Positions 1,565 to 47,200 of a stretch of 64,000 nt of DNA are shown one piece after another. The stretch lies in assembly GCA_003116975.1 (NCBI GenBank), contig BGKB01000024.1, forward strand, positions 459,678 through 523,677, in the 5' to 3' direction. Position 1 is the stretch's first letter, and each line of letters begins with the position of its first letter. This stretch comes from Aurantiochytrium sp. KH105. Its lineage: Eukaryota > Sar > Bigyra > Thraustochytrida > Thraustochytriidae. A program made the translations under genes and the position numbers. Under the pieces are notes generated by a model that saw only the letters and a program-made list of their open reading frames with translations, made no database searches and had not been told where the DNA came from.

Positions 1565-4129
1565 CTAGATCTCGTCAACCAAAGGCGCCCGCGAAATGCC
1601 CATCGGCGAGGCATTTCCTGCCGACACATCACGTTCGCAAGCGCGCTGCAGCGCATCGTAGAGAGGCTGCGCAGCCTTGGGCCGAGGAACGCGGCAGGCC
1701 AAAATCTCCTTCGGGTCGTGAGGGCGACCGTAGAATCGCTCATTTACGTCAGCGCGTTCACGAATGACGGCGCCCTCGAGGCTGATGCCAACAAAGAGGC
1801 CCTTGGACTGGGAGTATGTGTACGAGGGCGCAAAACGGGCTTCGGTACCTACGCTCACGTTGACCGAGGCCTCGCCCGTGCGCCCAAGCGGCCCGGCAGC
1901 CAGGCTCAGTTGCGAGCCGAGGGCCACTTGATTCTTCCCGCTAAAGGCATCCACAGCGCTTTCGGTGTTGAGAATGATGACAAAGTCGGTGACCTCGCCT
2001 CCCATTTGCGCGCCCCATCCCAAGCCAGCAAGACCGATGGCAGTGGGAGCGGTCCACGAACCTTGTCGATCGCGTCCGACCACGATGCCGGTTCCGAATC
2101 GTGTCGTCACGACGAAGCCTACCTTGATCACGGTGAGGAATGCAATGCCTTTGGCTTGCTTGAGGAGCATGGCAGGAATATACTCGTCGCGAATCACCGA
2201 CTGATGCGAGGTGCCGAAAAAATTGTCCACGGCCGCAGCTGCCTTGAGAATCTCCGCCGACATGGAGAAGCTGACCGGAGACGAAATGTTGACGCGCGCT
2301 GCCAGCGGCCCGGCAAACGATGAAACGACCGACGCCGCACCCGTCTGCGCGCTTGCGAGCGGGCTCGCAGTGGGGGATGCGCTTCCATCACCGCCAATGC
2401 TGCTATAAGTGCTTGCAAAGTTGCTGGATGTATCGCTGCCACCACCGCTGCTGCCATCGTTGCCGGGACCGAGCTCGCGGGTGGCGTTGCTGATGGTCGC
2501 AGCCAGTTCGTCCTGCATTGGGTCCAACGTCACACAGCATTTCTTGCATACTCGCTGTGGCTCGCGCACGCCAAACTGAGCGGGCAAAAGACGGAACTCG
2601 TTGCAGCATGTTTTGCAGTAAATCTTGCCGTCCATTCGGCAATGATGACGTCTCCGGAAAAAGTCAAACTTGTTGTGGCACAACGTGCACTCGGACTTTG
2701 ACGCGTCTGGCTCCCACGCAGGAGCTCCAGACGCTCCTGTGGTATCTACAGTTCCGCGACCGAACATGTACCACGGCTTGGCGGAATCAAACTGGAAGTG
2801 CAGAGATGACGAGGGTGCCGTCGTTGAGGATGCCACAGCCTCTGAGGCGGATTCGCGGCTTGGCGCAGATTCTGTCGCAGCTGTCATCGCAGATGTCGTC
2901 ACGGTCGCCGTAGCACCAGTAACAGGTGCCACTGGAGCCGCAAGAGGTGCCGCAAGCGGTGCCGCAAGAGGAGATGTCGAGTGCACAGAAGTTTTTGCTT
3001 CTGCTACGCTTTTGCCATTGTCGTCGTTTTCGGATTCTGTACACTTTGATTCCGACGCAAATGGCTGCGCTTCGTCCGATGCAGAGGTCTCGGTTGTCTC
3101 ACGGTCGTTGAACAAACCCATTTGAGCGTCAGGGTCCAGTGTTGCGTCCTTTGGTACGTCCTGCGTCTTGAAGTCTTCCTGATCATTTTCGGCGGAGACA
3201 GCATTTGATTCATCGCGTGCTCGCGCCCCCGGGACGTCGCCGGGAGCAGGGGACGCGGGCAGCACGGGGGCCGCCTTTGCGTCCATGTCGGCGTCAGCAT
3301 CGCCCTGGGCGCCGACGGAGTCGATATCGCGGTAGTCGTCGTGGCTGCGTTCCGAGGATCCAGAGGGTGAGTCTAGCTGCATGGTGACTAGGCCGTCTGC
3401 GAGGTCCTCTTCTTGACCGTCGCAGGCGTTCACATTGTTTTCTTCAATATCAATGCGAACCTTTGGCGAGACTCGCGGCGAGTTCCTCGGCGACGGCGAA
3501 CCCGACGAAATCGCCTCGTCTTGGGCATCATGGAACTGAGAAAAGTCGCCATCGTCGTTTGCATCGGCGGAGCTTTCGCTTGCATTGTCCACTCCGCCTT
3601 TATCCGTCGTATCCTCTTCGCTCCCCTCGTTGTCCTCGTTCCCATTCTCATTTTCATTTTCATTCTCATTCTCATTTTCGCCCTGGTCCAGGCCTGCTTC
3701 TTCGTCGCTCGCCGTGTTTTGGAAGATCTGGGCTGCGAGGTCCTGAGCTCGATCTTTCCCGCCAATCTCTTCGTCGGCTTCGTCTTCTGCCTCTTCATCC
3801 CGGCCCTCCTCGGCTCGGTCTTGGGCTTCTTCTTCGTCTTGCCGGTTATCTTCTCCGCGGACATTTCCCGCGTTCTCGACGTCTTTCGCGGAGCCGCTCT
3901 CCGTTTGCACCTCGCGGGCGTCCGGCTCGCGGCCGCGCTCTCGCTGCGCCTGGCCTTGCGCCGCCGCCGGCCCCCGGCCCTCCTCCTCCTGCTGCTGCTG
4001 CTGCTGCTCCACGTCGCCGTCCTCGCCGCGGTCCTCGGCGGCGCCGTGGACGTCGGTCTCGCGCTGCTCCATGTCGCCCATCATCCCGCGCATCGCCCCG
4101 CCCTCGCTCCCGGCCGCGGCGCGCTCCAT
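1565..4129 (-). CDS. FYVE and SYLF domain protein
   Basis: A single-exon gene of 854 residues. The first about 450 residues are acidic low-complexity sequence with a Gln run near residue 43, Glu-Asn dipeptide repeats and a repeated PLAA motif. A FYVE zinc finger follows at about 475-535, with CTLC at 481, the basic RRRHHCR motif, YCKTCC and VCKKC, so all zinc-ligand pairs appear present. A SYLF (DUF500, Ysc84-type) domain covers about 640-800, with the typical LLKQAKGIAFLT start, the glycine-rich WGAQMGGEVTDF core and the ERADVNERFYG end. In known families FYVE binds PI3P on endosomes and SYLF binds phosphoinositides and actin, so the protein probably links endosomal membrane to actin. The ATG at 4129 was chosen as the first in frame. 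It is divergent from the LRR-NEL gene. Confidence 0.9.
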   Translation of the reverse strand: MERAAAGSEGGAMRGMMGDMEQRETDVHGAAEDRGEDGDVEQQQQQQEEEGRGPAAAQGQAQRERGREPDAREVQTESGSAKDVENAGNVRGEDNRQDEEEAQDRAEEGRDEEAEDEADEEIGGKDRAQDLAAQIFQNTASDEEAGLDQGENENENENENENGNEDNEGSEEDTTDKGGVDNASESSADANDDGDFSQFHDAQDEAISSGSPSPRNSPRVSPKVRIDIEENNVNACDGQEEDLADGLVTMQLDSPSGSSERSHDDYRDIDSVGAQGDADADMDAKAAPVLPASPAPGDVPGARARDESNAVSAENDQEDFKTQDVPKDATLDPDAQMGLFNDRETTETSASDEAQPFASESKCTESENDDNGKSVAEAKTSVHSTSPLAAPLAAPLAAPVAPVTGATATVTTSAMTAATESAPSRESASEAVASSTTAPSSSLHFQFDSAKPWYMFGRGTVDTTGASGAPAWEPDASKSECTLCHNKFDFFRRRHHCRMDGKIYCKTCCNEFRLLPAQFGVREPQRVCKKCCVTLDPMQDELAATISNATRELGPGNDGSSGGGSDTSSNFASTYSSIGGDGSASPTASPLASAQTGAASVVSSFAGPLAARVNISSPVSFSMSAEILKAAAAVDNFFGTSHQSVIRDEYIPAMLLKQAKGIAFLTVIKVGFVVTTRFGTGIVVGRDRQGSWTAPTAIGLAGLGWGAQMGGEVTDFVIILNTESAVDAFSGKNQVALGSQLSLAAGPLGRTGEASVNVSVGTEARFAPSYTYSQSKGLFVGISLEGAVIRERADVNERFYGRPHDPKEILACRVPRPKAAQPLYDALQRACERDVSAGNASPMGISRAPLVDEI

Positions 4130-5831
4130 GGCTCCCGCGGGCGTGCGGCCGCGCGCGGGCGCGTGCGCGGTCTGCCTCGCGTGCGCGTGCGCGTGCGCGG
4201 TCTGCCTCGCGGCGCGGCGGCTCGCGTGGCCTCGCCGGCCTGGCCTCGGGGGAGGTTTCTTTCTTTCTCGCTCTGCCTGCTTCTACTGCCTGCTTCTACT
4301 GCCTGCCTTGCCTGCTCTGCTCTGCTCTTCCCGCCTCCGTCGCCGGCGCGGCGCGCGTCTGCTACGAGAGGCCGGGCCCGCGCAGCTTGGGTTGTAGTCG
4401 GCGGGCCCGCGCAGGGCCAACAGACAGGCGCAGAGGTGGAGAGGCGGAGTTTCTGAGATCGCGGAGATGGAGTTGGAGATGGGGAGGGGGATGGGGACCT
4501 AACAGCATGGTGCCGGGGAAGGACGTGGCGATGGTGAACAAAATGCACGGGGAGGCTGGAAGCCGGAGGAGTTGATGGATGGGAAACGACGACTTGGAGC
4601 GGAAACTGTTTGCGGTGGGATGGGAGCGAGGCACGATCGGTAGATGCGCTGAGCGTGACAAGTTGCAGGGCTGATTGCAAGGTAGTAGGCCTACGTGAGC
4701 TGCACTTCATTTTTTTTGGAAATATAGACGATGTGTATCACATGAGAGCGGGTGCAAGCTTGGAGAATTTTCGGGTCGAGGCGGCCAGCGAAACTCAAGC
4801 GGTTGAATAAAATATTGATCTTTCGCTTGTCAAGGATCGCGCAAGAGTCATATTTGACTAAAAGATCTCAATTTCAATCTCAATGTGCTCTCTCAATTTG
4901 GAAAACGTCGCTCATACGTGACGAAGATCACCGTTATGTGCAAAGATAAAGATGGCCAAGGCAAACATTTTCCACCTGGCTCCAAAACGTCCGCACAGCG
5001 CAAGAAGAGCCAACTCCGGTCCCCGCCCGCCAGCGCGGTCTCCCACGTCAGCGCGGTCTTCCTCGTCCAAGCTCGCCCTCTGTCCTCCTCAGCCCCGTCC
5101 TCGTGCCATCGTTCCGCCTCCGTTCCGCCTCCGTTCCGCCTCCGTTCTCCCCTTCGTAACATCGTCGTCGCGCTCCGACGGTCCTCGCTCCCAAACACGC
5201 CTTCACCTCCAAGCAAGCCAGCCAGCGCGCGAGCAAACCCGGCGGCCGGCCAGCGCGCGGGCCTCCCGCCTCGCGCCGGGCCCTGCCCGCGCCCCGCCCG
5301 CCCTGCGCGGCGCGGACGCGGCGGCGCGAGGCCGGGCGCCGCGGTGTGCGCCGCGCTCGATCGCGGCACGTGCAGGCGTGACAGGCGTGCAGAGAGGGGA
5401 GAAAAGCGACAGACAGACAGACGAGCAGCAGACGCGCAGACAGCAGCGCAGACCCCGAACGAGCGAGGGCGCGGCGCTGCGAGCGGGCGTGCGTGCGGGC
5501 GGGCGGGCGCGGCGCGGGAGCGGGCGGGCGAGAGGCCGGGCCTGCGCTCGCGGGCGAGCTCGGGGCGAGCCGGCGAAGGGGCTGCGAGGGGAAATCGCGT
5601 CGAGCGAGATTGAGCGAGTGATTGTTGATCGAACGACCCGCCGGCACGTGCACGCGACGCGACGCGAGGCGGGGAGGGACGCGGAAGAGGGGAGAGGAGG
5701 ACCTGCGCGCGGAGCAGGGCGGGGATTGGGGAGAGGAGCTGCGCGCGACGCGACTCGTGCTCTTGCGCGGAGAGTCGAGCTCGCGCGGGGAAGAAATTCG
5801 CTCCTGAGAGAAGAAGAAGTTGCGGGAGAAG
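4130..5831. other. Divergent intergenic region
   Basis: This 1.7 kb lies between the starts of the FYVE-SYLF gene (-) and the LRR-NEL gene (+). It is very GC-rich with long G/C tracts around 5220-5600 and an AT-richer patch at 4700-4960. The open frames here are GC-driven on both strands and resemble no family. It presumably holds both promoters and 5' leaders. An in-frame TGA at 5805 fixes the downstream gene's start. Confidence 0.6.
5111..5143. repeat. Three tandem copies of an 11-bp repeat
   Basis: The unit GTTCCGCCTCC occurs three times head to tail without mismatch, inside the divergent promoter region. It could be a protein binding site array or simple slippage. Confidence 0.9.
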
Positions 5832-8800
5832 ATGGTCGTTCGCAAGCTTCTGTGCGCAGCGAACCTGCTGCATCGTCGGGGCTCCCAGGAGGAAGAGGGC
5901 TTCGAAGGCAGTAGTGCCGGAAATCAGAGACTTCAAGTTGCCGTTCGCGAGGCTCGGACCTCGAGGGCAAGATCCGCATCATCACGCAGATCGTCGGCTT
6001 CACGTCGGTCGCGAGCTTCGTCCTCACGTCGATCCTCCAGACTTCGGAATGCAGACAGCACGCAGCATGTAGACGCTCTCGACCAGGATGATGTAGACGC
6101 TCTCGACCAAAATGATATGGATGATCACAATGACGCGATCAATAACGAAGATGCCACTCAGGAGGAGGCTAATCTTGCAGCGACAGCAGTAGAAGAAGAA
6201 GAAGAAGAAGAAGATTTTCTGGAAGGTCTGGTGGAGGACCAAGACCAACACGAAGAGGAAGAAGAAGAAGAAGAAGAAGAAGACAATAATGTCGCGGAGG
6301 AGCTGGCAAACTTGCTCGACAGAAATGCGGCAAACGTCTCCGGAGGAACGATCGGAGACTTGGAGGCGCAGATCCGAGCCCTTGCGGAAATCCAGAGCGC
6401 GCAGGCCGGGGAAGCGAGTCGTCTCGAGGAACAATTTGACCTTCTCGAAGGGGGTATAGACCCTGAGGAGATGGACCACCTCCTCGCCCTGAGTCTGGAG
6501 TACGACATGGAACAGGCAATGAACCAAGAAAGACTTGCGCTCGACAACGAGCAAGAGTCCGAAAACCTTGACCTTGGCCTGCGCATGTCCAACGAGCTGC
6601 AAGTATACCTTGAAAATTGGGCTAGCAGCGTAGCGACGGGCGACCTCTACACGATGGAGCGGATCTTTCACGAATTTGGTCAGCAAAATGCGCGCCTGGT
6701 GGAGGCGGAAGACGGCACGCAGTCAATTGCCGTGGAGGGCAATCTATCCTTCCAAGATCTCACCATTCCCGCGCTTCCACCTCGGGTCATCATCAGCGGA
6801 AACCTCTCCTTTCGCTCCTGCTCGCTTCCCGACGACGACACAGCGCACTGGACATGCAGCCGTCTTGCACTTGTGAATTGTCATGGGGATGCGCGCACTC
6901 TCATGGAAAACATCGAGTCTGCGCACAAATCCGCGAGCGGCGTGCTCGGCCTTCAGGGCCTTGCGCTGGACGCCATGTCCTCGAGCGAGAAGCCTCTCTC
7001 GCTTGAACTTGACAATTGCCAAGATCTATCGCACTTGGAAACTGCAGGCGACGAAGTCGTCGTCATGAACAAACTCAAAGTCAAGAGCTGCCCCGCTTTG
7101 GTGACCGGGCCGGCAAAGCTCAAGGTACTTCAAACCATGGAACTCTCGAACCTGCCGCGCTTAGAGTCCATTGGGCGCTCCAACCTGCATCTTGGCGAGC
7201 TGACGCGTATTCATCGCTGTCCGTCTCTCAACACTCTCTGTGACGATGATCTTCTCATCGCCGGCGTGCTCAGAATTGAAGATGGGAAAATTGAGCGTAT
7301 CTGCGAGGGCGCTCTCCGCTATGTGCCGGTGATCGAAAACGATGCGGCGAGTGGAGGCGAGACCTCTCCGAGCGTGACCATCGAGTGCATTGAGACGGAT
7401 ACACCACTTGCGGCCCGCATCGATAGTCCTGGAATGGACGTGCATTTCGCTGGCAACAAACTCCCAGCCAAACTCTGCGAAGGTTCCATTATCGTGCGTT
7501 CCTTCTCTGTGAGCGGACCCTGGTCATTTCACCAGCGACTCATGGAGCAATATGGCACCGAAGCCGAGCAATCCGGGACCGGCCGAGGTTCGCGCAGATC
7601 GCACCGGGGCCCTAGCAGAGATGCTGGCCCTCTTGGCATCGTCGTGGACGAACTTGAATCAGAGGAGCGTTTTCACGACGAGGATTCGGGGCAATCGTCG
7701 CGAGCTTCGCAACAAGCAGCAGCGCCAACAGCGTCTCCGGAACCACTGGGGCTGCGCAACTGGCTCGACGATGTACAAGCAACGATGTCGATTCACGTGA
7801 AGCGCCTTCCCGTGAAGGATTTCCGAGGCAAACTTTCCTCGCCCTTGCTTCATTTGGAGAGCCTTCCGATGGAGGACTTTCCCGATTGGAAGTGCGAGGC
7901 GGAAAAGGGTTCGCTCCAGCTGGTGCACTGCCCGTTGCTGGAGGTGGTTTGGCCGGATGACGCACCGTCGGTTCCAATCTCCATTAATGTAGAAGACTGC
8001 GCAGCCTTGGAGAGACTTTCGGACCAAGAAGTGCAACTGGGAAGCTTTCGCATCTCGCGAGCTCAACAGATGCAGCGGCTGGCGCGATCCATCGTGTTTA
8101 CCGGACAGGAGTCAATCTCCATTGTTGATTTGCCGTCGCTGACGAGGCTTTCCGACGATCTGGCATTCTTCAAAGATGATATTACACCGCAACTGTTCTT
8201 GCGCAGTGTCGGCATCAAAAGCCTTTCGGATATCGAAGGCAGCGGGTTCACTCAGCTTCGTGTGGAATCCTGCAACGAGCTCGAGGATGCGAGTCTTCGG
8301 GGCTTGTGGCAATCTGTGGAAGTCGTGTCTTGCGACAAGGTAGCACGCGTCGAGGTTGGCCTGACAACTCGCGGTGGTTCTGGCGAGCTCACACTGAAAA
8401 AGCTCCCTCTCTTGCAAGACATCAAGCTTCGCACGGGATGTCTCAGGCTCAACATATCTGACTGTCCCGAGTTCGTTGGTGAGACGATCACAGGTGACCA
8501 TGATAGCGATGCCGGAGGCGACAGTGGGAGTTATAGTGGATCGTCAATGAGAAAGCCTCTGGACATTGGTCTGCTGTCAGGTTTACGCTTTTTATCGTTG
8601 GCCGGAAGTTCGGGGCTCCGCACGATTCCCGGTCCCTTGCCGCATACTTTACGGAACCTCGACCTCTCGAACTGCCCCAACCTGGTTCACATCCCAGACG
8701 ATGTGTTCAACGCCGCCCCCGGACGTGTCATACTCCGATTAGATCGCTGCGCATCGTTGCAAGGCATTCCTCCAATTCACGTTGCGTCGCTAAGCGCCGA

Positions 8801-11800
8801 GGGCTGCGTGGGCCTGCGCGAGGTTGGCGCTGGGTTCCGGGCGGGTTTGGTGTCTCGCGTCCGTGAAGATGGCTACATTGTGCGACTTTCTAGCGCACTG
8901 GGCGATGTCAACCTTCGCGGATGCGTGGCTTTAGAAAAGTTCGAGATGAAATTTGTTTTGGGTGATCTCGACCTTTCTGGAACTGCCGTACGGGAACTAC
9001 AGGCGATGCGCGTTTTGGGAAACCTGAGTTGCACGCACATGGGCAACTTGGAGATTGTCCACGCGGGATCTTTGGTTGGTCAGCAACAGCCAGGAATTCG
9101 GCGTTTGCCAATCAATGCGGAGGTGCGCTTTCGGTACTGCCCTCGTCTGAAGTCGATCTCCATGGAGCGCGTCTTTGGCATGCTTGACATTTCGCACTGC
9201 ATGAGTCTTGAAGAGCTCGCGGGCCCGCGCATGGAGGTCGGCGTCGACTTGCCGCTGGTAACAACATGGGACAGCAAGCCACTGTTGGACTCCTCGTACG
9301 ACATGCTCAAGCCTGGGATGCTGCGGCTGCGCAACTGTCCATCGCTCCGCAAGCTACCGAGCCATTTGATTTGCAGAGGCGGACTCGATGTGCGCTATTG
9401 CATGGGCTTGGAAGATATGTCAGGAGTCAAGCTGGAAGTTGGTTTTCCGGCGCTCGGGTCTCTCAGTCGCTCGCGGCAGAACGACACTACCCGCGCGGAG
9501 GCGTTTGCGTCGACAACGATTATCGGGTGTCCGATGCTCGAGGCTCTTCCATCTCGGATGGTCACTTACGGAGACTGCATCTTTGCCTTTCTCGATGGTC
9601 TCAAGGGTCTTCCCTCGGAGGCACTTTATTATGGCCACCTTATTGTGTCGTCGTGCCGTGGGTTCACAACTGTTCCGTCGCGTATGCGCGTTCGAGACAC
9701 TTTTGCAATTCATAGCTGTGAAACCTTCGAGGGCGTTCCGGCAGGATGGCACCATGAAAATCCTCCGGCGCTCCTGACGATTGCCGCGGCGCGTCGTCTT
9801 TTACGCAGACGCAAGAGCGTGCAGCAGGCGGAGAGACGTTTGGACCGTACGGTTCCGTCGCAATGGCGTGCCAATTCAGCTCAGCTTGAGATGTGTTTGC
9901 TCGAGCATGCGGCCGAGCAGCTGCGGCAGCGGCAACGTGCGTGGACGGCTAATTCCAAGCCGGTGGACTACCAATGGCTCCGAAGGAACACCTTTTTGGG
10001 CGGGGCGCGACGCTCGATCACTCGCCTGCGGGACCGACGGCTTGGGTCGACTTCAGGAGCCCGGTCGGCGCGAGAGGGATCGTTTTCGTCGTCGGACGAT
10101 CTGGACGTGGCAGCTTCCTCCTCGATGGTCTTGCTTCCTCGCGAACAGGAGGAGTTGGCGCGGCTTGAAGAGGAGACTCTGCGCGAGGAGGCTAATACAA
10201 GCAGGAGTTATCACACAGAAGGAGACAGCGACAACGCGGGACAAGACGAAGACGGTGACGGCGGCAACGACGATGAAGTATACATGCGTGAGTTCACATC
10301 AGAATCCAACCTCTTCCGGGAGGACGACGAGTCTAGTCAAGAACTTGCAGCGCAAGACCTCGCAGACGAGGACTACAATTCAGACGACGCTGAAGAGCTT
10401 CGCGAAGACGACGAAGTCGCCACTACTGATCCGTGGAGCGGCAATGTTTCCAAGTGGGAGCGAACGCGGCTATTACATCGAACTGTAATTTCCTTGTGCC
10501 CTGGCGTGAAGCGTATTCCCGAAGGCGTCGAGGCGCAGTCCCTTGCGTTGGTGAATCTTACTGAGCTAGTGGATGTGAGTGAAGATCTCCGGGTCGAGGT
10601 CAATCTTTGGGTCAATTCGGCGCCGAAGCTAGAGCAATTCCCGGTGACGGTCATTGCACGCCTCGCACAGTTTGGTGCCGAGGCTCGGCTCCAAATGGCG
10701 AGGTTCAACGAGTACTGCAGCTCGAATCCGGAAGCGGTCGTGCGACGGCCGTCGAACTGGCTTGCACGCGTGCGAAGACGCACGGGTGTCCCTCCAGAGC
10801 GACCGATCACATCGCGTGCTACGATGATGCTGAACGCGACGGGCATTGACGCGGAGGAGCTTCGTTCGATGCGCGAAGTGTCTCTGCAGGATGCCGGCGA
10901 TGCGCTGGAGTGGGTCACGTGGATGGCTGACGATCTCTTTCAAGGTGACCTCGGGACTTCAGATGCACTGTTTGATCGCGAGGAGGAGGAAGAGGAGGAT
11001 TTAGCGGAGGATGACTGGGATGGGGGCGACGCAGATGCGCTCAACGGCAATGGCAACGGGAGCCTGGGCGGCGAGTTCGAGGACTTTCGCACGGCCGTGT
11101 TGTTTTGGAAGGCTGCTGCGACGGGTCGCCCGCCGCGTCTGATGCGCATGCTCTTCGAGTCGGAAGACGACTATGAGGTGCTTTCGTGTCTTGACCGCGT
11201 CGTGGACGCGGCGTATCGGGGCAGCGTGCTGACATTTCTGGACATGCTGCGCAGATCGCGTGAGTACCGCAACCCTACGACACGACGCGGGCTTGCCGAG
11301 CGTGTCGTGGAGGTCCTGCATAATGTTTCGCAGGACGAGGAGGCTCGCGATGAGCTTTCTGCCCGCATGGCGGATGCGATTGACGCTTGCGAGGACAAAC
11401 CGATTTGGGCGTTAAATCAGATGGAGGTGGTGGGGCTGATTGCACATGCACGGGGAGATCGCGAGGCGTTGCGAGCGCTGGGGAGGCGCCTGGTGAATCT
11501 TGACATTGTGCACGAGGCGGCACGGAAACGCATTGAGCAACGAGGCGGTTTTCTTGATGTCGACGATGTTTGCGTGTATTTGCAGTACGAGATCCAGTTC
11601 CGACTTCCGCTGAACCTCCCTGTATCATCACATTTCATGGTGTATGGCAGCACGATTCCCGGCGAAGAGGTCATTCGCGTGTCGCGTGCAGCCTTGAATT
11701 TGTCTGACGAAGACTTTGAGGCATGGCTTTCTCGATGGCCCGAGTGGACGCGTCAGGATCGTTTTGAGTATGCTCGTTCTTTACAGTGGGAAGACCTGCC

Positions 11801-12041
11801 ACGGAATGGGAAGCGTGTGAGCCTTGGTCGCTCGACCCTGCTTGGTGATGATATTCCAGATCCTGTTCGGTTGAGTGGGGCGACCTACTCGATGGAGGAG
11901 TTGCTCACGCATTGGGTGCGCACAGGCATGGACTTTAGCAACGTTCGGCACTCGGTGCAAGAGATGGCCAAAGGTTTGTCGCGATGTGACATTGTGTTTG
12001 AGGATGACGAAGATGTGGTCGTTCCAGAGGGCAAAAGATAA
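5832..12041 (+). CDS. LRR protein with C-terminal NEL-type E3 ubiquitin ligase domain
   Basis: A single-exon gene of 2069 residues. The start is the first ATG (5832) after an in-frame stop at 5805. Residues 1-80 are basic and Arg/Ser-rich, followed by two poly-Glu stretches and a helix resembling a ubiquitin-interacting motif (about 211-228). About residues 300-1310 are irregular leucine-rich repeats of the form LxLxxCPxLxxLP. An acidic linker and a short second LRR-like stretch (about 1537-1603) follow. The C-terminus (about 1690-1980) closely resembles the NEL domain of bacterial LRR effector ligases: a Trp-containing entry helix, helices leading to DACEDK with the catalytic-type Cys1853-x-Asp1855 pair, the following ALNQM segment, and a distal helical lobe ending LSRWPEW. 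In that family the Cys forms the ubiquitin thioester and the LRRs bind substrate. Activity here is inferred. Bacterial origin by transfer is possible, but codon use and acidic linkers look native. Confidence 0.85.
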   Translation: MVVRKLLCAANLLHRRGSQEEEGFEGSSAGNQRLQVAVREARTSRARSASSRRSSASRRSRASSSRRSSRLRNADSTQHVDALDQDDVDALDQNDMDDHNDAINNEDATQEEANLAATAVEEEEEEEDFLEGLVEDQDQHEEEEEEEEEEDNNVAEELANLLDRNAANVSGGTIGDLEAQIRALAEIQSAQAGEASRLEEQFDLLEGGIDPEEMDHLLALSLEYDMEQAMNQERLALDNEQESENLDLGLRMSNELQVYLENWASSVATGDLYTMERIFHEFGQQNARLVEAEDGTQSIAVEGNLSFQDLTIPALPPRVIISGNLSFRSCSLPDDDTAHWTCSRLALVNCHGDARTLMENIESAHKSASGVLGLQGLALDAMSSSEKPLSLELDNCQDLSHLETAGDEVVVMNKLKVKSCPALVTGPAKLKVLQTMELSNLPRLESIGRSNLHLGELTRIHRCPSLNTLCDDDLLIAGVLRIEDGKIERICEGALRYVPVIENDAASGGETSPSVTIECIETDTPLAARIDSPGMDVHFAGNKLPAKLCEGSIIVRSFSVSGPWSFHQRLMEQYGTEAEQSGTGRGSRRSHRGPSRDAGPLGIVVDELESEERFHDEDSGQSSRASQQAAAPTASPEPLGLRNWLDDVQATMSIHVKRLPVKDFRGKLSSPLLHLESLPMEDFPDWKCEAEKGSLQLVHCPLLEVVWPDDAPSVPISINVEDCAALERLSDQEVQLGSFRISRAQQMQRLARSIVFTGQESISIVDLPSLTRLSDDLAFFKDDITPQLFLRSVGIKSLSDIEGSGFTQLRVESCNELEDASLRGLWQSVEVVSCDKVARVEVGLTTRGGSGELTLKKLPLLQDIKLRTGCLRLNISDCPEFVGETITGDHDSDAGGDSGSYSGSSMRKPLDIGLLSGLRFLSLAGSSGLRTIPGPLPHTLRNLDLSNCPNLVHIPDDVFNAAPGRVILRLDRCASLQGIPPIHVASLSAEGCVGLREVGAGFRAGLVSRVREDGYIVRLSSALGDVNLRGCVALEKFEMKFVLGDLDLSGTAVRELQAMRVLGNLSCTHMGNLEIVHAGSLVGQQQPGIRRLPINAEVRFRYCPRLKSISMERVFGMLDISHCMSLEELAGPRMEVGVDLPLVTTWDSKPLLDSSYDMLKPGMLRLRNCPSLRKLPSHLICRGGLDVRYCMGLEDMSGVKLEVGFPALGSLSRSRQNDTTRAEAFASTTIIGCPMLEALPSRMVTYGDCIFAFLDGLKGLPSEALYYGHLIVSSCRGFTTVPSRMRVRDTFAIHSCETFEGVPAGWHHENPPALLTIAAARRLLRRRKSVQQAERRLDRTVPSQWRANSAQLEMCLLEHAAEQLRQRQRAWTANSKPVDYQWLRRNTFLGGARRSITRLRDRRLGSTSGARSAREGSFSSSDDLDVAASSSMVLLPREQEELARLEEETLREEANTSRSYHTEGDSDNAGQDEDGDGGNDDEVYMREFTSESNLFREDDESSQELAAQDLADEDYNSDDAEELREDDEVATTDPWSGNVSKWERTRLLHRTVISLCPGVKRIPEGVEAQSLALVNLTELVDVSEDLRVEVNLWVNSAPKLEQFPVTVIARLAQFGAEARLQMARFNEYCSSNPEAVVRRPSNWLARVRRRTGVPPERPITSRATMMLNATGIDAEELRSMREVSLQDAGDALEWVTWMADDLFQGDLGTSDALFDREEEEEEDLAEDDWDGGDADALNGNGNGSLGGEFEDFRTAVLFWKAAATGRPPRLMRMLFESEDDYEVLSCLDRVVDAAYRGSVLTFLDMLRRSREYRNPTTRRGLAERVVEVLHNVSQDEEARDELSARMADAIDACEDKPIWALNQMEVVGLIAHARGDREALRALGRRLVNLDIVHEAARKRIEQRGGFLDVDDVCVYLQYEIQFRLPLNLPVSSHFMVYGSTIPGEEVIRVSRAALNLSDEDFEAWLSRWPEWTRQDRFEYARSLQWEDLPRNGKRVSLGRSTLLGDDIPDPVRLSGATYSMEELLTHWVRTGMDFSNVRHSVQEMAKGLSRCDIVFEDDEDVVVPEGKR
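6190..6292 (+). repeat. Two GAA-rich microsatellites encoding poly-Glu
   Basis: Two runs of GAA/GAG codons (around 6190-6220 and 6255-6283) lie inside the LRR-NEL gene and encode acidic tracts of seven to ten Glu residues. Confidence 0.9.
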
Positions 12042-12832: not shown

Positions 12833-13906
12833 TTAAAGTTTGGCAGCCTTGGAAGCCTGAACAGCGAGCTGGATGCCAGTGCTTGAGTCGATTTCCTCGA
12901 GAAGATCGAATGCGTGATCTGTTTCACCATCAATGTCAACAATTTCGTTGTTGAGCCAGGAGTCGAGGATGGACCGCTTGACGCCAGCCTCGAGAAGGGA
13001 TTTTCCAAAGGCGTCAGTCTCTACCTTGGCGCCCGTCCAGACCATGCGCTCCTTGAGACCCTCGAAGGGGCCAGCGCTGGCGTGGACGCCATTCTCGCTG
13101 ACATTTGGTGCCTTTCCAAGGTCCAGAGACTTGTACTCGGTGTACATGGCAGCGCGGAGCGAACCAGGCGCAGCCTTTGTTGGGTCGGTGGCTCCGATGA
13201 CTTTTGTCCGAAAATCCTTCCACGAGATCTGCTCCTCCGGGAAACGAACCACGTAATAGGTAACGCGAGCATCGGAAGAGGTGTACACGGCCCGCATGCT
13301 GGCGTAAAAAGGGTTCATGACGAAGCGGTCTTGGTCGGGAAAGTAGCCGACGTAGGTGCCGGGGGCGAGTTTGAGCTTGACGAGGTCAGCGCTTTGCCAC
13401 ATGCGGTCAATGTCGGCAAGAGAGATTTCGTCAAAGTCCTCCTCGAAGGTCTTGAGGTTGACGAGTTTGCCATCCTCGACGGCTTCCTCCCACGACTCGC
13501 CAAAGGTTGATGTAAATGCGTCCTTTTTGTCGTCGCTGATGGGAAGGTCCGCAGGTGCAAGGCGCAAGGCGACCTTGGCGATGTGAGCGTAGTGTTCGTC
13601 AATGATGCCGCGCTTGTCAATTTCGCTGCCGGTGAGGTCACCCTCTGAGAGGATCTCAATGTTCTTTTCGGCGAGAAAGTCCTCTACAAAGACTTTGGCC
13701 TTGGGGGTGTCGGCGTGCGGCTTGATGAAGATAAGCGCCTCGTTGAACTGCGTGGCGGTGTCGTCCTCTGCGACCTCTGTTTCGTGCGCGGCGGTCTTCA
13801 TTATGGGCTCGGGGCCACCCTCCTCGGCGACACCCTCTGGGTCTTGGTCGTCAACGTGCTTGGCCGTAAGCGCGCCGGCCTGGCCCTTGCTCACGACGCA
13901 GCCCAT
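12833..13906 (-). CDS. Acylated nucleoside diphosphate kinase-like protein
   Basis: The protein has 357 residues. The start was placed at the ATG giving MGCVVSKGQ, a strong N-myristoylation signal (Gly2, Ser6) with Cys3 available for palmitoylation; the frame stays open upstream but that part is low-complexity. From about residue 60 the sequence follows the NDP kinase fold: ALIFIKPHA as the first strand, a helix, then late motifs VIGATDP, PGSLR and NGVHASAG, the last carrying a His (275) where NDP kinases have their phosphorylated His. About 100 extra residues separate the first helix from the late motifs, making the domain much longer than the usual 150 residues. Predicted role: a membrane-anchored NDPK-like protein. 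Whether it transfers phosphate is unknown, because the segment after the His differs from the usual HGSD. Confidence 0.8.
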   Translation of the reverse strand: MGCVVSKGQAGALTAKHVDDQDPEGVAEEGGPEPIMKTAAHETEVAEDDTATQFNEALIFIKPHADTPKAKVFVEDFLAEKNIEILSEGDLTGSEIDKRGIIDEHYAHIAKVALRLAPADLPISDDKKDAFTSTFGESWEEAVEDGKLVNLKTFEEDFDEISLADIDRMWQSADLVKLKLAPGTYVGYFPDQDRFVMNPFYASMRAVYTSSDARVTYYVVRFPEEQISWKDFRTKVIGATDPTKAAPGSLRAAMYTEYKSLDLGKAPNVSENGVHASAGPFEGLKERMVWTGAKVETDAFGKSLLEAGVKRSILDSWLNNEIVDIDGETDHAFDLLEEIDSSTGIQLAVQASKAAKL

Positions 13907-14430
13907 TGGGGACGGAGATGAACGAACGGAGGTGACGCGGCTCGGTCCAGGAAGGAAGACGATATGGATGGGGCTGCGCGCGCGTGCGCGGGCCGCGAGT
14001 GAGGTTGCTCTGCTCGGTCGGCCTCTGTGCTGCGAGAGGCGTCGCGAGGGGGGGAGGGAAGGAGGAGGGCAGGTCAGGCCGGAGGGCGTACGAACGTGAG
14101 CACGTGCGTGCGAGGGCTCAAAGCTGGTTTGCTTGCCGAGCCGCAATTCCTGGATGCATGCACGCTGGGCGTAAGGTACGCCAGCAAGCGATAAAGGGTG
14201 CACACGCGCCTTTCGCAAGCCCGACCAACACGTGCCGAGCCGAACGCATCACTAGTTTGGAGAACTAGTATCACGAGTACAAACTGCAACTACTTTATCA
14301 CTAGTTTTATCTAGTTTTGCACTGTTCCACGTGAGAATATACACCTCCGACGCGTGGGGTAAACAAAGTCTCACCTAGACCCATTTTCCTGTAGATGACA
14401 GGTTCAATTGAAATGCTCGCGGCAGCTGTC

Positions 14431-41259: not shown

Positions 41260-44200
41260 CTATTCATCTATCGAGGGCACAAGACTGTGGGCCCGTAGCT
41301 GAAGCTCGACAATGAGCGACTCGAGTTCGTGCTCTTTCATATAATTTCGTGGCGGGATCTCCTTGCCCTTATCAGTAAGTAACCTCGTCTGGGCCGACAA
41401 ATTTACTTCTCGCTTGCGCCATGAAAGAACTTCGAGGTGATCAAAGATCTTCCTCTGTAAGTCCTCATGGAAACGTTCCTTCTCTTTGCCTCGAAAGTTC
41501 CAGCCATTTTCCACCGCAAGGAAATGCTTGCCTTCCAGTAATTGATTGTCGCCATCGGCTATCGTCCCTGAGCCTTTATGATCAGCACTCTCTTCCAGTG
41601 AATTAGCGCCTTCGTCACCAGATGCGGGTTGTATTCCCAATGCTGCGTGCACCGCGGAGCAACAGCCAGGTTCCAGCACGACGATGATGACTCTGGCTTC
41701 CTCGATCGACGAGTCGCTGCCGAGCTGCCGCTTGAGCTCTGCTACTACCGAGGAGTCCTCCTTTCCGATAACGCACATGGAGGGAACTCGGCGCGGCTCC
41801 TCGGGTTCCCGGGTGTGGAAGCCCGCGAGCGTGGCTAGCTTACGAATCATGGCCTCTTCTTCAAAGTGACGACGGCGATACGGGATGATGCGGCAGACCT
41901 TGAGTGCCTCCTGGGCGGCTTCAAAATACTCTTTATAGTTGTCCGCATACTTGACTTCGGACTCCTCGTGCTCATCTGCGCCACCCACGCTAGTTCTGAA
42001 AAGGTGACCGGAGAGGTCTTTCTCAAGGTTGCGGCGAGCGATTCTGCACCTGTACTCTTTGGCTTTTTGCCTGACCTTGACTGCCTCGTCCTGGTAGATC
42101 TTCACAATTTTCACGTCATCAGTCTCGTTGGCCAGGTCTTGCAGCGTAGCCGCTTTGTCCGTTTCCGCTTTCGCTTGCATTTGAAGAGTCTTTACATCGC
42201 TGTTTCCTGTATCGTCCCACGTCCATGGCTCATCTTCAATCGCTTGCCACTTACTGAAGCGATCGTCTTCCTCGGCAAGGAAGAAAATATGCTTGTCGAG
42301 AGGTCGGTCCATGTCCTTGAATTGATTCACAGCAAACTTGAGTTCCGCGAGACAAAAAGGGCGAAAGAGAACATCCGTCGTCAGCACCATCACGAAGCAC
42401 TGCGAAGCCAAAACGCCCCGCTGCATCGTTTCCAAAGTGATCTCCGCTGCGCGCATGTCGACCCACGCCGTCATCTGATTGCGCTCGAGGCCAGCAGCCA
42501 GGTCTTTAACAATGCCCGCCGCCTGCTGCTGCATGTGCGAGAGGAAAAAGTGGTACGTTGGTAGCGCAGTGAGTTCGTTGCTCAAGGCAGGTTCGTGATA
42601 CCATTTCGGGTATTTCTCTTTGTCTCTTCGAGACAATCTCAGCGTACGTTCGATCGGCTCGAAACGCGGCTTCAATCCCTTGATACTTCTATGCAAGCTC
42701 AGGATGCGACCCTTCACATACAGGGACTTCCGCTTTGAGGAGCTTGAACGGTCACCACTGGACATGCGACTCGATTTGCGGCTCGACTTACGGCTCGATT
42801 TGCGGCTCGACCTACGCCTGTTTCCGGACTCTCGCGAACCGAGGTTCTCTTCAATTTGGCGCGAGGTCTCGCTTTCGGAAGCTAGGATCTCGTCGAAGAA
42901 CGGATGACGCAAAAGGTCGTCGAGGCTGATTCGCTCGTCGGGTTTGCCACGAAGACACAGGCGCACCAGATCGCGAGCAGCCTCAATATCATCTTCGCTT
43001 CCGCGCAGCCCGTCCTCCACTGTACCGACACGGCCATTTTCATTGACTGGCTCACCGCTCTCCGGTCTGAGCTTGATGCGGCCCATGCGTTCTTCATCCA
43101 GTGCAAGCCAATTCATGAGCTCCAACTTATCTTCGTTGTGCACCAGATTATCATCGGATTCGTCGACCATGAAGAGCTTGGTGCCCGAAAGTAGCTGGTA
43201 CAAGAGCGCGCCAAAACCCCAGATATCCTGGGAGGCGTGTCCCTCTGGTTTCTTCGCACCATCAAAGATCGATCGCGCTACTTCCGGTGCCACGTAGCCG
43301 GTACTTGCTTTCTCGCTCACCTCCGTCTCAAACTCCACAGAGGCATCGAGATCGATCAGCTTCCACTCCTCTTGTCGATTGAGGCCCTCTCCCGTCGGCG
43401 ATTCGCGCCAGTCTTCAGACACCGTTTGGCCTCCCTTGTCGTTGTCGATGAAGGTGTTTGCGCTCGACTTGCTCGTGCGGACTGCATTACGCGGCTTGAT
43501 GTCACCATGAATGCGTTTGCTTTCGTGAAGGCCCTGCAACGCCAGGGCGAGCTGATACGAGATCTCCCGAACTTTATCCAGATCGCGACCCGCGAATCGT
43601 TCGGTGTTGATGGCCTCAAATAGCGACCGAGAGCCTCGTGGCATGACCAGGCACTTCTGCTCGTCTAAAAGGCGACGGTCGGCCTCAGTCTCGCGATCCA
43701 ACAACTCCAAGCACCCGAGAAGGCTCTTCCCGTCATTGACCGTCCGCGCCTTGATTTCGCGGTCATATTGGTTTTTCTCACGCATGATCTTGAGCGCCAC
43801 AAGCGTATTGTTGCGGACGTCTGTTGCAAGATGCACAGCGCAGGTTTTAGACTCGTGCACTGGCGGCCCCTCAGCAATGTTGTAACGGTTGAGGTATGTA
43901 CCATAGGTCTTGGCCCAATTCTTGGTGTTCTTGTTTGCAAGCGCAAGTGAACGAGCGGAGCGCCCACTTTTGTCTTCCGTGCCCATCAAGAGCAGACCGT
44001 CGTTTAGAGGCAGCTTGCCATTGATAAATTCCTGGCAGAAGCGCTCGGGAAGCGCATACGTCCGGCCCGCTGGGCGACAATCCAGCAGAGCATGAAAAAT
44101 CTGGACTGCGTCTTCATCGCCTTCATCGCGGTCATACTGGAGCCAAAGATTATAATCGGTGAAAGGTGCTGCAGTCGGAGCATGCTTAGCGAGGATCGAC

Positions 44201-47200
44201 ACGAAAACCGCAAAGATGTGAGCCTGTTCGCTTGCAAGCTGGTGAGCAGCTGGCGTCCACGATGAACCGGAGGCATCGAGCAGGTACCTGCCGATGGCGT
44301 CAACGCGCTCCGAACATGACAGAGTCTTGAGAATTGGCATCCCTTTCTCATCTTTTCCAATCTGCTTGGACCACAGGCTCGAAAAACTGAGGGACCCTGG
44401 GATGTCCGGCATAGCTCTATGGAGGAGAGAGAGTTGTCAGCTTTTTGTCAACAAATGGCAACGGAGATGTGCAAATGTAAGCAAGTAGACTTACCTCACT
44501 GATGTCAGCGTAGTATTCGCGTCAAGTAGACGGGCAAGACGCTCGAAACTGGCCGCGTCGAGTCCATTGTTGATGATTCTGAGTATGTCGAGTCATGATT
44601 GAGCAGTTGAGTTTTCGAAGCGGGCCAGTGCGGCAAGCGTGAGATGATGTTCGTCAGCTGTGTTCGATCATTGGCAGGCAAGCACAATGATATGCTTTTG
44701 ATGCATGTATGATTGCACTTTCAAAGAATAGGAACCCCCGACTTACATGAGACTCTTTATGGACTTGTTGTCGGCCAGAAGTAAAGAGAGCGCTTCGGCG
44801 CCCTTCAGACCGAACGCGGTGTTGTCCAGACTATTTGCATGTCAATTTTCAGAGAATAAGCGATATTGAAATCGCAAGCGCGAGGAGAACCAATTAGCTT
44901 CAAGCTCATTTGCGTCGGACTTCGTGTCCTTCCTGGTCATATTACTTACTTGAGCGTTGCGAGTGTGCTGTTCGCAGCCAGCGAAGCACAAAGTGCTTCG
45001 ACACCGTCGTCCTTGATCGATGTATTGTCTTCTAAGCTTTACATGGTGAAATGATCAAAGCGTAACGAAAAGGAAAGAAAAGGAAACGTCGTGAATGTAG
45101 GCAAAGATCATCTTATGTCAGACATGACCGTCATTGCCAACACGAAAGAAAACATTCAAGAAAACTTCAAACTTACGAAAGCGTTGTGAGAGTCTCATTC
45201 TTGCTCAGACCATTGCCGAGACTCTTTGCGCCCGTAACTCCAATCTCGTTGCCTCTTAGACTGTGGATAATAGAAGGATTTGTACAATGGGAAAGAAGCG
45301 AAGATCATCGCCCATCAGTCATACATTCCATTCGAAAGATGTCGAGTCCTTCAAGACCACAGTACGAACGTCCGCTCACACACACACGAGCATATGCCTT
45401 CATGAAGTGTATGCAAAGACCTTCTCGGGAATCTCAAACTTACTTGAGCATCGTCAGCGACTTGTTGGCCGACAGCCCTTCACCCATCCATTTGGCTCCC
45501 TCATCACCAATGCCGTTGCCGCTGAGGCTGCGCGTATTGTGCCATCATCGCAAACGTATGAAAGGAAGTATGTATGTGCGAACGTTCATTCGTTAGCTGA
45601 GATCGTCAAGGACGCCATTTTGAGCCGAAGTGTCGCTACCATCATACAGACACACATTGACAATTGAATTTAACACAAAGACAGGCTTTACCGAGAAAAC
45701 CTTTAACTTACAAAAGTTCCACCAACGTGCTGCTGGCCGCCAGTCCATCACTCAGCGCCTTGGCACCCTCATCGCCAATGTTGTTTCCCCCAAGGCTGCG
45801 CGATATGTACCATCCACCATTGCGCAAAGCACACGAGCAAGCGCGAACATGCAGTTGTTTGTCAGTGGCGTCTGTTGATCTAGTCCAAGCAAGTCGAGGC
45901 ATCACTGCCACCACACCTTCATGCACAGCACAAGGTTGCATGCAGTACATGCGAGAGCCTTCCACAAGGATGATGAACTTACCTGAGCGTCGTCAGGGTG
46001 CTGCTGGCCGCCAGTCCATCACTCAGCGCCTTGGCACCCTCAGCGCCGATGCCGTTGTTTTCAAGGCTGCGCATTGTGTACCATCCACCATTGCGCAAAG
46101 CGCACGAGCAAGCGCGAACATGAAGTTGTTTGTCAGTGGCGTCTGTTGATCAAGTCCAGGCAAGTCGAGGCATCACTGCCACCACACCTTCATGCACAGC
46201 ACAAGTTTGCATGCAGTGCATGCGAGAGCCTTCCACGAGGATGATGTACTTACCTGAGCGTCGTCAGGGTGCTGCTGGCCGCCAGTCCATCACTCAGCGC
46301 CTTGGCACCCTCAGCGCCAATGTTGTTTCCCCCAAGGCTGCGCGATATGTACCATCCACCATTGCGCAAAGCACACGAGCAAGCGCGAACATGCAGTTGT
46401 TTGTCAGTGGCGTCTGTTGATCTAGTCCAGGTAAATCGAGGCATCGCTGCCACGATATCTTCATGCACAGCACAAGGTTGCATGCAGTGCATGCGAGGAT
46501 GTTGAACTTACTTAAGCGTCGTCAGGGTGCTGCTGGCCGCCAGTCCATCACCCAGCGCCTTGGCACCCTCATCGCCGATTTTGTTTTTTTCAAGGCTGCG
46601 CGATATGTACCATCCACCATTGCGCAAAGCACACGAGCAAGCGCGAACATGCAGTTGTTTGTCAGTGGCGTCTGTTGATCTAGTCCAGGTAAATCGAGGC
46701 ATCGCTGCCACGATATCTTCATGCACAGCACAAGGTTGCATGCAGTGCATGCGAGGATGTTGAACTTACTTAAGCGTCGTCAGGGTGCTGCTGGCCGCCA
46801 GTCCATCACCCAGCGCCTTGGCACCCTCATCGCCGATTTTGTTTTCTTCAAGGCTGCGCGTTGTGTACCATCCACCATTGCGCAAAGCACCAAATAAGGT
46901 TGTATGACAGAGCGGTAATTTGTAAATTGTTAGTAGAGTTGGATGATCAAATCAATGCAGCGTGCAAAACTTACGAGAGAGTCTCGAGCGCTTTGTTGGC
47001 CGCCAGCATGTCCCCGATTGTCTTTGCGCCAACGGCGTCAATGTTGTTTTCTCCAAGGCTAATTAGAACGTCAAAAGCAGCATCATTAGTTTGATCTGTG
47101 GCGCCAACGTTTCTTCAGCACAAGTACAGGAGCATTTTTGTGTGCTGCGCATGTGCAGCAGAAACTTACTTGAGGGACCTCAGCGTGCTGTTCTCGGAGA

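What the first reader, a model, noticed from the sequence alone, without database searches (positions are those of the whole stretch)
5832..12041. NEL-type (bacterial effector-like) E3 ligase domain in a eukaryotic gene
The C-terminal 300 residues follow the NEL domain of bacterial LRR effector ligases (IpaH, SspH and SlrP type) from the Trp-rich entry helix through the Cys-x-Asp motif (Cys1853, Asp1855) to the distal helical lobe, and they sit behind LRRs as in those effectors. I know of no characterised eukaryotic member. The rest of the gene (poly-Glu microsatellites, Arg/Ser N-terminus, eukaryotic neighbours) looks native. It could be an old transfer repurposed as a host ligase or immune factor.
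Basis: partly seen in the sequence, partly recalled or inferred. Interest (0 to 1): 0.95.

Follow-up and report, generated by a model that had tools for sequence, protein, structure and literature searches.

The report
Bacterial-type ubiquitin ligases in a protist
A single-celled eukaryote carries a family of its own genes built around a ubiquitin-attaching enzyme domain that is known as a weapon injected by bacteria, which suggests that the domain also works, or even arose, inside eukaryotic cells.

Summary
The single ORF at 5832-12041 (2069 aa) ends in a NEL E3-ligase domain (Pfam PF14496, E 1.4e-24, 87 bits against a cut-off of 24) with C-x-D at Cys1853/Asp1855. It is not contamination: neighbours are eukaryotic, and the 76-Mb assembly holds 32 NEL copies on 29 contigs, which are 16 allelic pairs; 32 of 32 keep C-x-D without a stop. 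Two mitochondrial genes avoid TTA, as in the Thraustochytrium mitochondrial code, so the host is probably a labyrinthulomycete. The 16 form one group (support 100/99), nearest to three LRR-type bacterial NELs. Some carry SPRY+LRR, SAM or Arm-like modules in front. Between alleles NEL is the most constrained part (dN/dS 0.064 against 0.184 upstream). A family-specific ~70-aa tail follows, where bacterial NELs carry their E2-binding thumb. Its likeness to a U-box is weak and unproven, and its lack of likeness to bacterial thumbs is uninformative. Best reading: one old acquisition that expanded into an endogenous family of sensor-type ubiquitin ligases. Activity, targets and direction of transfer are untested.

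The parts
5832..12041 (+). single uninterrupted ORF, 2069 aa: Ser/Arg-rich and acidic N-terminus, LRR-like region, acidic linker, NEL domain, family tail
6190..6290 (+). two poly-Glu tracts (GAA/GAG runs)
   Evidence: read by eye
6699..9761 (+). LRR-like region (about residues 290-1310, limits by eye)
   Evidence: motif scan (24 loose matches in the whole protein); Pfam LRR_EndoS E 9.4e-5, below its cut-off; phmmer to PDB 7crb, a NAD+ hydrolase (a plant LRR immune receptor, recalled), residues 904-987, E 1.5e-5
10464..10631 (+). short LRR-like stretch ahead of NEL (about residues 1545-1600)
   Evidence: read by eye; no profile match
11076..11225 (+). N-terminal entry of the NEL domain (FEDFRTAVLFW..., residues 1749-1798)
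   Evidence: the 16-locus profile aligns this part to an IpaH chain; outside the Pfam match
11226..11753 (+). NEL domain, Pfam match, residues 1799-1974
   Evidence: PF14496 E 1.4e-24
11388..11390 (+). predicted catalytic cysteine codon, Cys1853 of C-E-D-K-P
   Evidence: C-x-D in 32 of 32 copies
11394..11396 (+). Asp1855 of C-x-D
11787..11990 (+). family-specific C-terminal module (residues 1986-2053), weakly U-box-like, at the place of the bacterial E2-binding thumb
   Evidence: alignment of 16 loci; a tail query finds 28 places, all in NEL ORFs; comparisons

Best explanation
The gene is one of 16 loci of an endogenous eukaryotic family of cysteine-type (NEL) ubiquitin ligases. Shown: the family is intact in its NEL part, native, diploid, one group in my sample, and under purifying selection between alleles. 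Inferred: the N-terminal repeats (LRR-like here; SPRY+LRR, SAM or Arm-like in paralogues) bind a target or signal; the NEL core takes ubiquitin from a host E2 onto Cys1853 with help from Asp1855 and passes it to the bound target; the conserved tail helps to recruit E2-ubiquitin, replacing or extending the bacterial thumb. The family probably arose from one old transfer of an LRR-NEL-like gene from bacteria, followed by duplication and exchange of front domains. A shared enzymatic C-terminus behind variable recognition modules recalls TRIM- or NLR-type sensors, so sensing of microbes or damaged proteins is a plausible role.
For: NEL profile on this protein and 32 of 32 genome matches above cut-off, best E 6.5e-30, control genomes 0 of 14. 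32 of 32 keep C-x-D, no stop in the domain; 16 allelic pairs at 90.6-99.8% identity over the parts held. Solved NEL chains match the 16-locus profile from 3.6e-30. Eukaryotic neighbours: FYVE+SYLF, EMP70, BBS2, Nop14, TRM1, eIF2A. Spacing kept between haplotypes: NEL to U-box gene 313 kb on C90 and 315 kb on C49; 95 and 99 kb on C4 and C55. One group, 100/99, joined at 99/96 to three bacterial NELs of 602-629 aa that carry L..LP repeats. Allelic dN/dS 0.064 in NEL, 0.136 in the tail, 0.184 upstream. Front domains: SPRY and LRR over cut-off in two loci, SAM in one, LRR_EndoS in one.
Against: The place of the E2-binding thumb holds a tail of unknown fold, so E2 recruitment is a guess. LRR matches in the window protein are below Pfam cut-offs; 10 of the 16 loci show NEL alone at E 0.01 (three of these ten are C-terminal pieces). 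The eukaryotic stem is long (1.49 changes per column), so its bacterial neighbour is uncertain. No other eukaryotic genome could be searched. No direct evidence of an immune role.
Confidence: 0.8

Rival explanations
1. Bacterial contamination, or a very recent single transfer that is not functional in the host.
For: The domain is described as bacterial in the passages read.
Against: 32 copies on 29 contigs, the longest 1.14 Mb; allelic pairs with kept spacing; eukaryotic neighbours; SPRY and SAM domains in the same ORFs; identity to bacterial NELs about 27-32% in the rows listed; allelic dN/dS 0.064.
Confidence: 0.01
2. The NEL domains are native but no longer ubiquitin ligases: a scaffold or pseudo-enzyme with the E2-binding part lost.
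For: The C-terminal part has no detectable likeness to bacterial thumbs; one allelic pair has CGDMI in place of C-x-D-K-P.
Against: C-x-D kept in 32 of 32; NEL is the most constrained part between alleles. Bacterial thumbs of the two types also fail to find each other by the same method, so lack of likeness is weak evidence.
Confidence: 0.12
3. The proteins are secreted effectors that the protist uses against prey or hosts, as bacteria do.
For: Bacterial NELs are injected effectors; a labyrinthulean, Aplanochytrium, feeds on living diatoms (start of the abstract of PMC6326421).
Against: Open frames of 635 to 3546 aa, some with SPRY, SAM or Arm-like modules, which are usually intracellular (general knowledge). 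No signal peptide was evident to the eye in the window protein; no program was run.
Confidence: 0.08
4. The family is originally eukaryotic, and bacteria captured the ligase from a eukaryote to use as an effector.
For: 16 divergent loci in one genome, while 9 of 398 sampled Pseudomonadota genomes, the centre genome included, have NEL; NEL works only with ubiquitin, which is eukaryotic (general knowledge).
Against: At the midpoint root, which is for drawing only, the group nests among bacterial NELs; no second eukaryotic lineage was available to search.
Confidence: 0.12

Closest known systems
LRR-type NEL effectors (IpaH, SspH1/2, SlrP; NopM of rhizobia)
   Same: NEL core with C-x-D and LRR ahead of NEL; profile E from 3.6e-30 against solved chains; three bacterial NELs of this type are the nearest rows in the tree
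   Different: Nuclear genes of a eukaryote, 16 loci; C-x-D-K-P in 30 of 32 copies where the three LRR-type bacterial rows have C-x-D-R; extra front domains in some; a family tail not matched to any bacterial thumb compared, which is weak evidence
Large Pseudomonas NEL proteins (frames of about 1.5-2.4 kaa)
   Same: NEL core; the only kind found by the genome-contig scan (11 loci, 28-32% identity)
   Different: Further away in the tree than the LRR-type NELs
TRIM and NLR sensor families (recalled)
   Same: Shared effector module behind variable recognition domains, SPRY or LRR among them
   Different: Ligase module is NEL instead of RING; no nucleotide-binding domain reported by Pfam in the ORFs scanned (three of them C-terminal pieces)
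U-box E3 ligases
   Same: The tail shows a DPV motif and a helix with W in a U-box-like order; hhalign score 24.6, 0 of 200 shuffles as high
   Different: No Pfam U-box match in 16 of 16 tails, no PDB U-box hit; a deeper U-box profile lowers the score to 21.3 against a shuffle maximum of 20.1
NEL-like claim for a green-alga NLR protein (PMC7145615, passage)
   Same: The passage calls the ODAL domain (SSF52075) of an algal NLR highly homologous to NEL
   Different: SSF52075 is an LRR-like superfamily (recalled); the passage reports no C-x-D motif and no Pfam NEL score

Membership tests
NEL E3 ligases (PF14496) | NEL domain profile above the curated cut-off | tested here: met
   87.2 bits against 24; 32 of 32 genome matches over cut-off
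NEL E3 ligases (PF14496) | catalytic Cys in a C-x-D motif | tested here: met
   32 of 32 copies
NEL E3 ligases (PF14496) | LRR domain ahead of NEL | tested here: met
   LRR-like units in the window protein, Pfam matches below cut-off; phmmer to an LRR receptor. In paralogues LRR over cut-off in two loci with SPRY and LRR_EndoS in one; no LRR match in the Arm-like one; other loci by eye only
NEL E3 ligases (PF14496) | C-terminal E2-Ub-binding helical thumb | tested here: inconclusive
   tail against bacterial thumbs scores 8.8 and 10.9, but 3 LRR-type against 33 other bacterial thumbs also fails, 12.4
NEL E3 ligases (PF14496) | Cys-dependent ubiquitin thioester and ligase activity | not testable with these tools
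   needs a bench assay
NEL type III effectors | gene of a bacterium that delivers the protein by a secretion system | tested here: not met
   gene with eukaryotic neighbours in one of 16 diploid loci; by homology a NEL ligase, not a bacterial effector
U-box E3 ligases | U-box profile in the tail | tested here: not met
   no Pfam U-box match at E up to 10 in 16 tails
U-box E3 ligases | remote profile similarity to U-box | tested here: inconclusive
   for; weak or against

The most novel reading that the evidence does not exclude
A eukaryotic class of sensor ligases in which a NEL cysteine core is coupled to a degenerate U-box-like E2-recruiting tail in place of the bacterial thumb, a division of labour like that of RBR ligases, serving cell-autonomous immunity; and such eukaryotic NELs may be the source from which bacterial IpaH-type effectors were taken.
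Probability: 0.12. Interest if true: 0.96.

Novelty: new variant of a known kind. Interest (0 to 1): 0.86.

Why it matters
Passages of two papers describe NEL ligases as having no structural homology to eukaryotic E3s in the catalytic domain (PMC12506513) and as unique to bacteria (PMC4822128). A native eukaryotic family of 16 loci would contradict the second statement, give a eukaryotic setting in which to study how NEL enzymes are regulated, bear on where the effectors came from, and matter for plans to inhibit NELs as bacteria-only targets.

Tried and rejected
Contamination: rejected. Viral carriage: the viral-contig scan with the 16-locus profile found 7 pattern matches and no relative. 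Host by PUFA-synthase carrier domains: the PP-binding search showed no long tandem array, at most two neighbours on C290, and its counts are lower bounds; this does not favour a typical thraustochytrid. Host by 18S: the Rfam search failed, and an exact pattern of mine found nothing. Host by mitochondrial code: in COX1 the only two TTA codons are adjacent, five codons before the next ordinary stop, and in the neighbouring ORF TTA occurs only ahead of its first Met. No RNA family and no tRNA in the window. Tail as thumb: no likeness, but the test is blind, since bacterial thumbs of different types do not find each other either; the first positive control (98%) held the same rows on both sides and is void. 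Tail as U-box: score 24.6 against at most 15.2 in 200 column shuffles and 7.7 reversed, at most 15.1 in 29 and 14.6 in 56 overlapping NEL windows set against the U-boxes, and at most 17.1 for the tail against the 56 bacterial windows; with three U-boxes from solved structures added 21.3 against a shuffle maximum of 20.1, against the UFD2-like row alone 13.8, against the other five 23.0; against the three solved ones alone 19.4. Left as a hypothesis. Gly+Pro content of tails and LRR-type thumbs was alike and not used.

Papers. Passages only, by 'find': PMC9320238, PMC7145615, PMC12506513, PMC4822128, PMC7029713, PMC6557245; in PMC13345962 the terms sought do not occur. Nothing was seen of PMC12258536 (one search failed) beyond its listing. 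'NEL domain' with 'protist' is in one paper, PMC7145615, which likens a domain of a green-alga NLR protein to NEL. PF14496 or IPR029487 is in 6 papers; passages of four were seen, of which PMC7029713 lists the profile among queries for Giardia; PMC7104275 and PMC9569774 were seen as listing only. PMC9320238 says that more than 900 species are predicted to encode NEL proteins, without naming groups in the passage seen. Other searches were capped lists: 30 of 84, 30 of 388, 15 of 114, 12 of 34, 2 of 2, 10 of 985, 10 of 6,501. 'Not in print' is claimed for these lists only. UniProt and InterPro could not be looked up; automatic annotation of eukaryotic NELs may exist there.
Full report
The observation. 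The ORF at 5832-12041 (+) is uninterrupted and encodes 2069 aa; the first ATG after the in-frame stop is at 5832. Pfam NEL matches residues 1799-1974 at E 1.4e-24, 87.2 bits, cut-off 24. Phmmer against solved structures finds IpaH chains from 2.7e-10, SspH1 at 2.7e-6 and SspH2 at 6.6e-6. A profile of 16 loci finds IpaH chains from 3.6e-30 and SlrP, SspH1 and SspH2 at 1.4e-25, 1.7e-25 and 1.4e-23; in the one alignment printed the C-x-D motifs coincide. Cys1853 and Asp1855 are as stated.

The surroundings are eukaryotic. Of the 40 ORFs listed in the window, ten were scanned with Pfam: nine gave matches at E 0.001 (one of them, a RING finger, just below its cut-off) and one, 12833-14218, gave none. 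The matches include FYVE+SYLF, three Myb repeats, TRM1, Nop14, EMP70, BBS2, a kinase-TIR protein and eIF2A. The window is part of a contig in an assembly of 76.03 Mb in 367 contigs. In the mitochondrial contig, the only two TTA codons of COX1 are adjacent and lie five codons before the next ordinary stop, and in the neighbouring ORF TTA occurs only ahead of its first Met. TTA as a stop is the rule of NCBI code 23, named for Thraustochytrium mitochondria (recalled). This supports a labyrinthulomycete, though no long carrier array of a PUFA synthase was seen, and the 18S gene was not obtained.

It is a family. The same genome has 32 NEL matches, 32 of 32 above the cut-off; the 14 control genomes have none. 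They lie on 29 contigs, keep C-x-D in 32 of 32 and C-x-D-K-P in 30 of 32, and have no stop inside the domain. They pair up as 16 allelic pairs at 90.6-99.8% protein identity over the parts held. For 11 of the 32 the 5' part of the frame lay outside the stretch fetched. Spacing is kept between haplotypes: the NEL gene and a U-box gene lie 313 kb apart on C90 and 315 kb on C49, and 95 and 99 kb apart on C4 and C55. For comparison, the U-box profile finds 11 matches in the genome.

Architecture. One allele of each of the 16 loci was scanned with Pfam. Two add SPRY and LRR over the cut-off; one adds SAM over the cut-off and LRR_EndoS below it; one has a sub-threshold Arm match; one has LRR_EndoS over its cut-off; the window protein has LRR matches below cut-off; the other ten show NEL alone at E 0.01, three of them scanned only as C-terminal pieces. 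L..L..C-type repeats are visible to the eye in several of these. So the NEL core has been joined to several recognition modules of eukaryotic kind.

Selection. Over the 16 allelic pairs, NG86 with Jukes-Cantor gives dN/dS 0.064 in the NEL match (154.5 synonymous and 33.5 non-synonymous differences), 0.136 in about the first 75 residues after it and 0.184 before it, leaving out the first 150 codons of each frame and anything ahead of the first Met; for pairs held in part only the shared part counts. The enzyme part is the most constrained.

Phylogeny. The tree holds 16 own loci and 36 bacterial NELs (25 of the 30 loci, and 11 named Pseudomonas loci, one of them identical to one of the 25), on 195 columns. 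Those three frames are 602-629 aa and hold 6-8 L..LP motifs, so they are LRR-type; that they are rhizobial is a guess from genome size. Relations within the 16 are mostly unresolved, and the tree has no outgroup. In a sample of 398 Pseudomonadota genomes, the centre included, 9 have NEL. The genome-contig scan returned 11 Pseudomonas loci at 28-32% identity. The viral scan returned none. Plasmid hits, 156 records, are mostly Shigella (130), all under 60% identity.

The tail. After NEL all 16 loci have an alignable stretch of about 70 residues with a D-P-V / W-S-x-x-[DE]-L-L-x-H-W-V-x-T-G-x-D pattern, only W and one G being invariant. A query with one tail finds 28 places in the genome; by position all are in NEL ORFs, and the tails of four of the 32 copies are missed. 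In SspH1 the E2-ubiquitin-binding thumb lies at residues 623-697, about 130 after Cys492 (PMC12506513, passage); the tail begins 133 residues after Cys1853. The tail does not resemble bacterial thumbs, but thumbs of the two bacterial types do not resemble each other either by the same method, so this does not prove replacement. Likeness to a U-box is above shuffles and above NEL windows but weakens with a deeper U-box profile, and Pfam and PDB searches do not see it. I hold it as a hypothesis at about one in three.

Mechanism. Known NELs take ubiquitin from E2 onto the active-site Cys and then pass it to a substrate bound by the LRR, with LRR-mediated autoinhibition (PMC12506513 and PMC4822128, passages). 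By homology the protist proteins should do the same, with the front domains choosing targets. That step, the E2 used and the biological role are inferred.

Literature. Passages of reviews and papers call NELs structurally distinct from other E3s or unique to bacteria. Searches for NEL with protist terms and for the family accessions found no report of a eukaryotic NEL family in the capped lists shown; the nearest is a sentence likening a domain of a green-alga NLR to NEL. Databases of eukaryotic proteins were out of reach, so automatic annotation may already mark such proteins.

Verdict. A real, native, expanded eukaryotic NEL family; a new variant of a known kind of enzyme, with high interest.

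Noticed in passing
window 41260-44412 (-): 1050-aa frame with a protein kinase domain (PF00069, E 3.4e-21) and a TIR domain (PF13676, E 9.8e-9); a possible second immune-type gene about 29 kb from the NEL gene.
   Followed up: no
L009 (C31:323992-329179) and L010 (C93:135042-140343): Two NEL genes lie side by side in divergent orientation, on both haplotypes.
   Followed up: partly
window 5832-5890 and N-termini in L011 and L026: Three NEL proteins begin with a similar short stretch, M..LLC....RRGS-like, perhaps a membrane anchor or lipidation site (by eye).
   Followed up: no
L061 (C366, mitochondrial): TTA is not used inside two mitochondrial genes, and COX1 ends near two adjacent TTA codons, as in NCBI code 23.
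   Followed up: yes
G000:C27 and C56, C44 and C141: Very long open frames (4476 to 5831 aa) with several carrier-protein domains, probably polyketide, peptide or fatty acid synthases.
   Followed up: no
window 4001-6000: G+C-rich stretch (0.66) just upstream of the NEL ORF.
   Followed up: no
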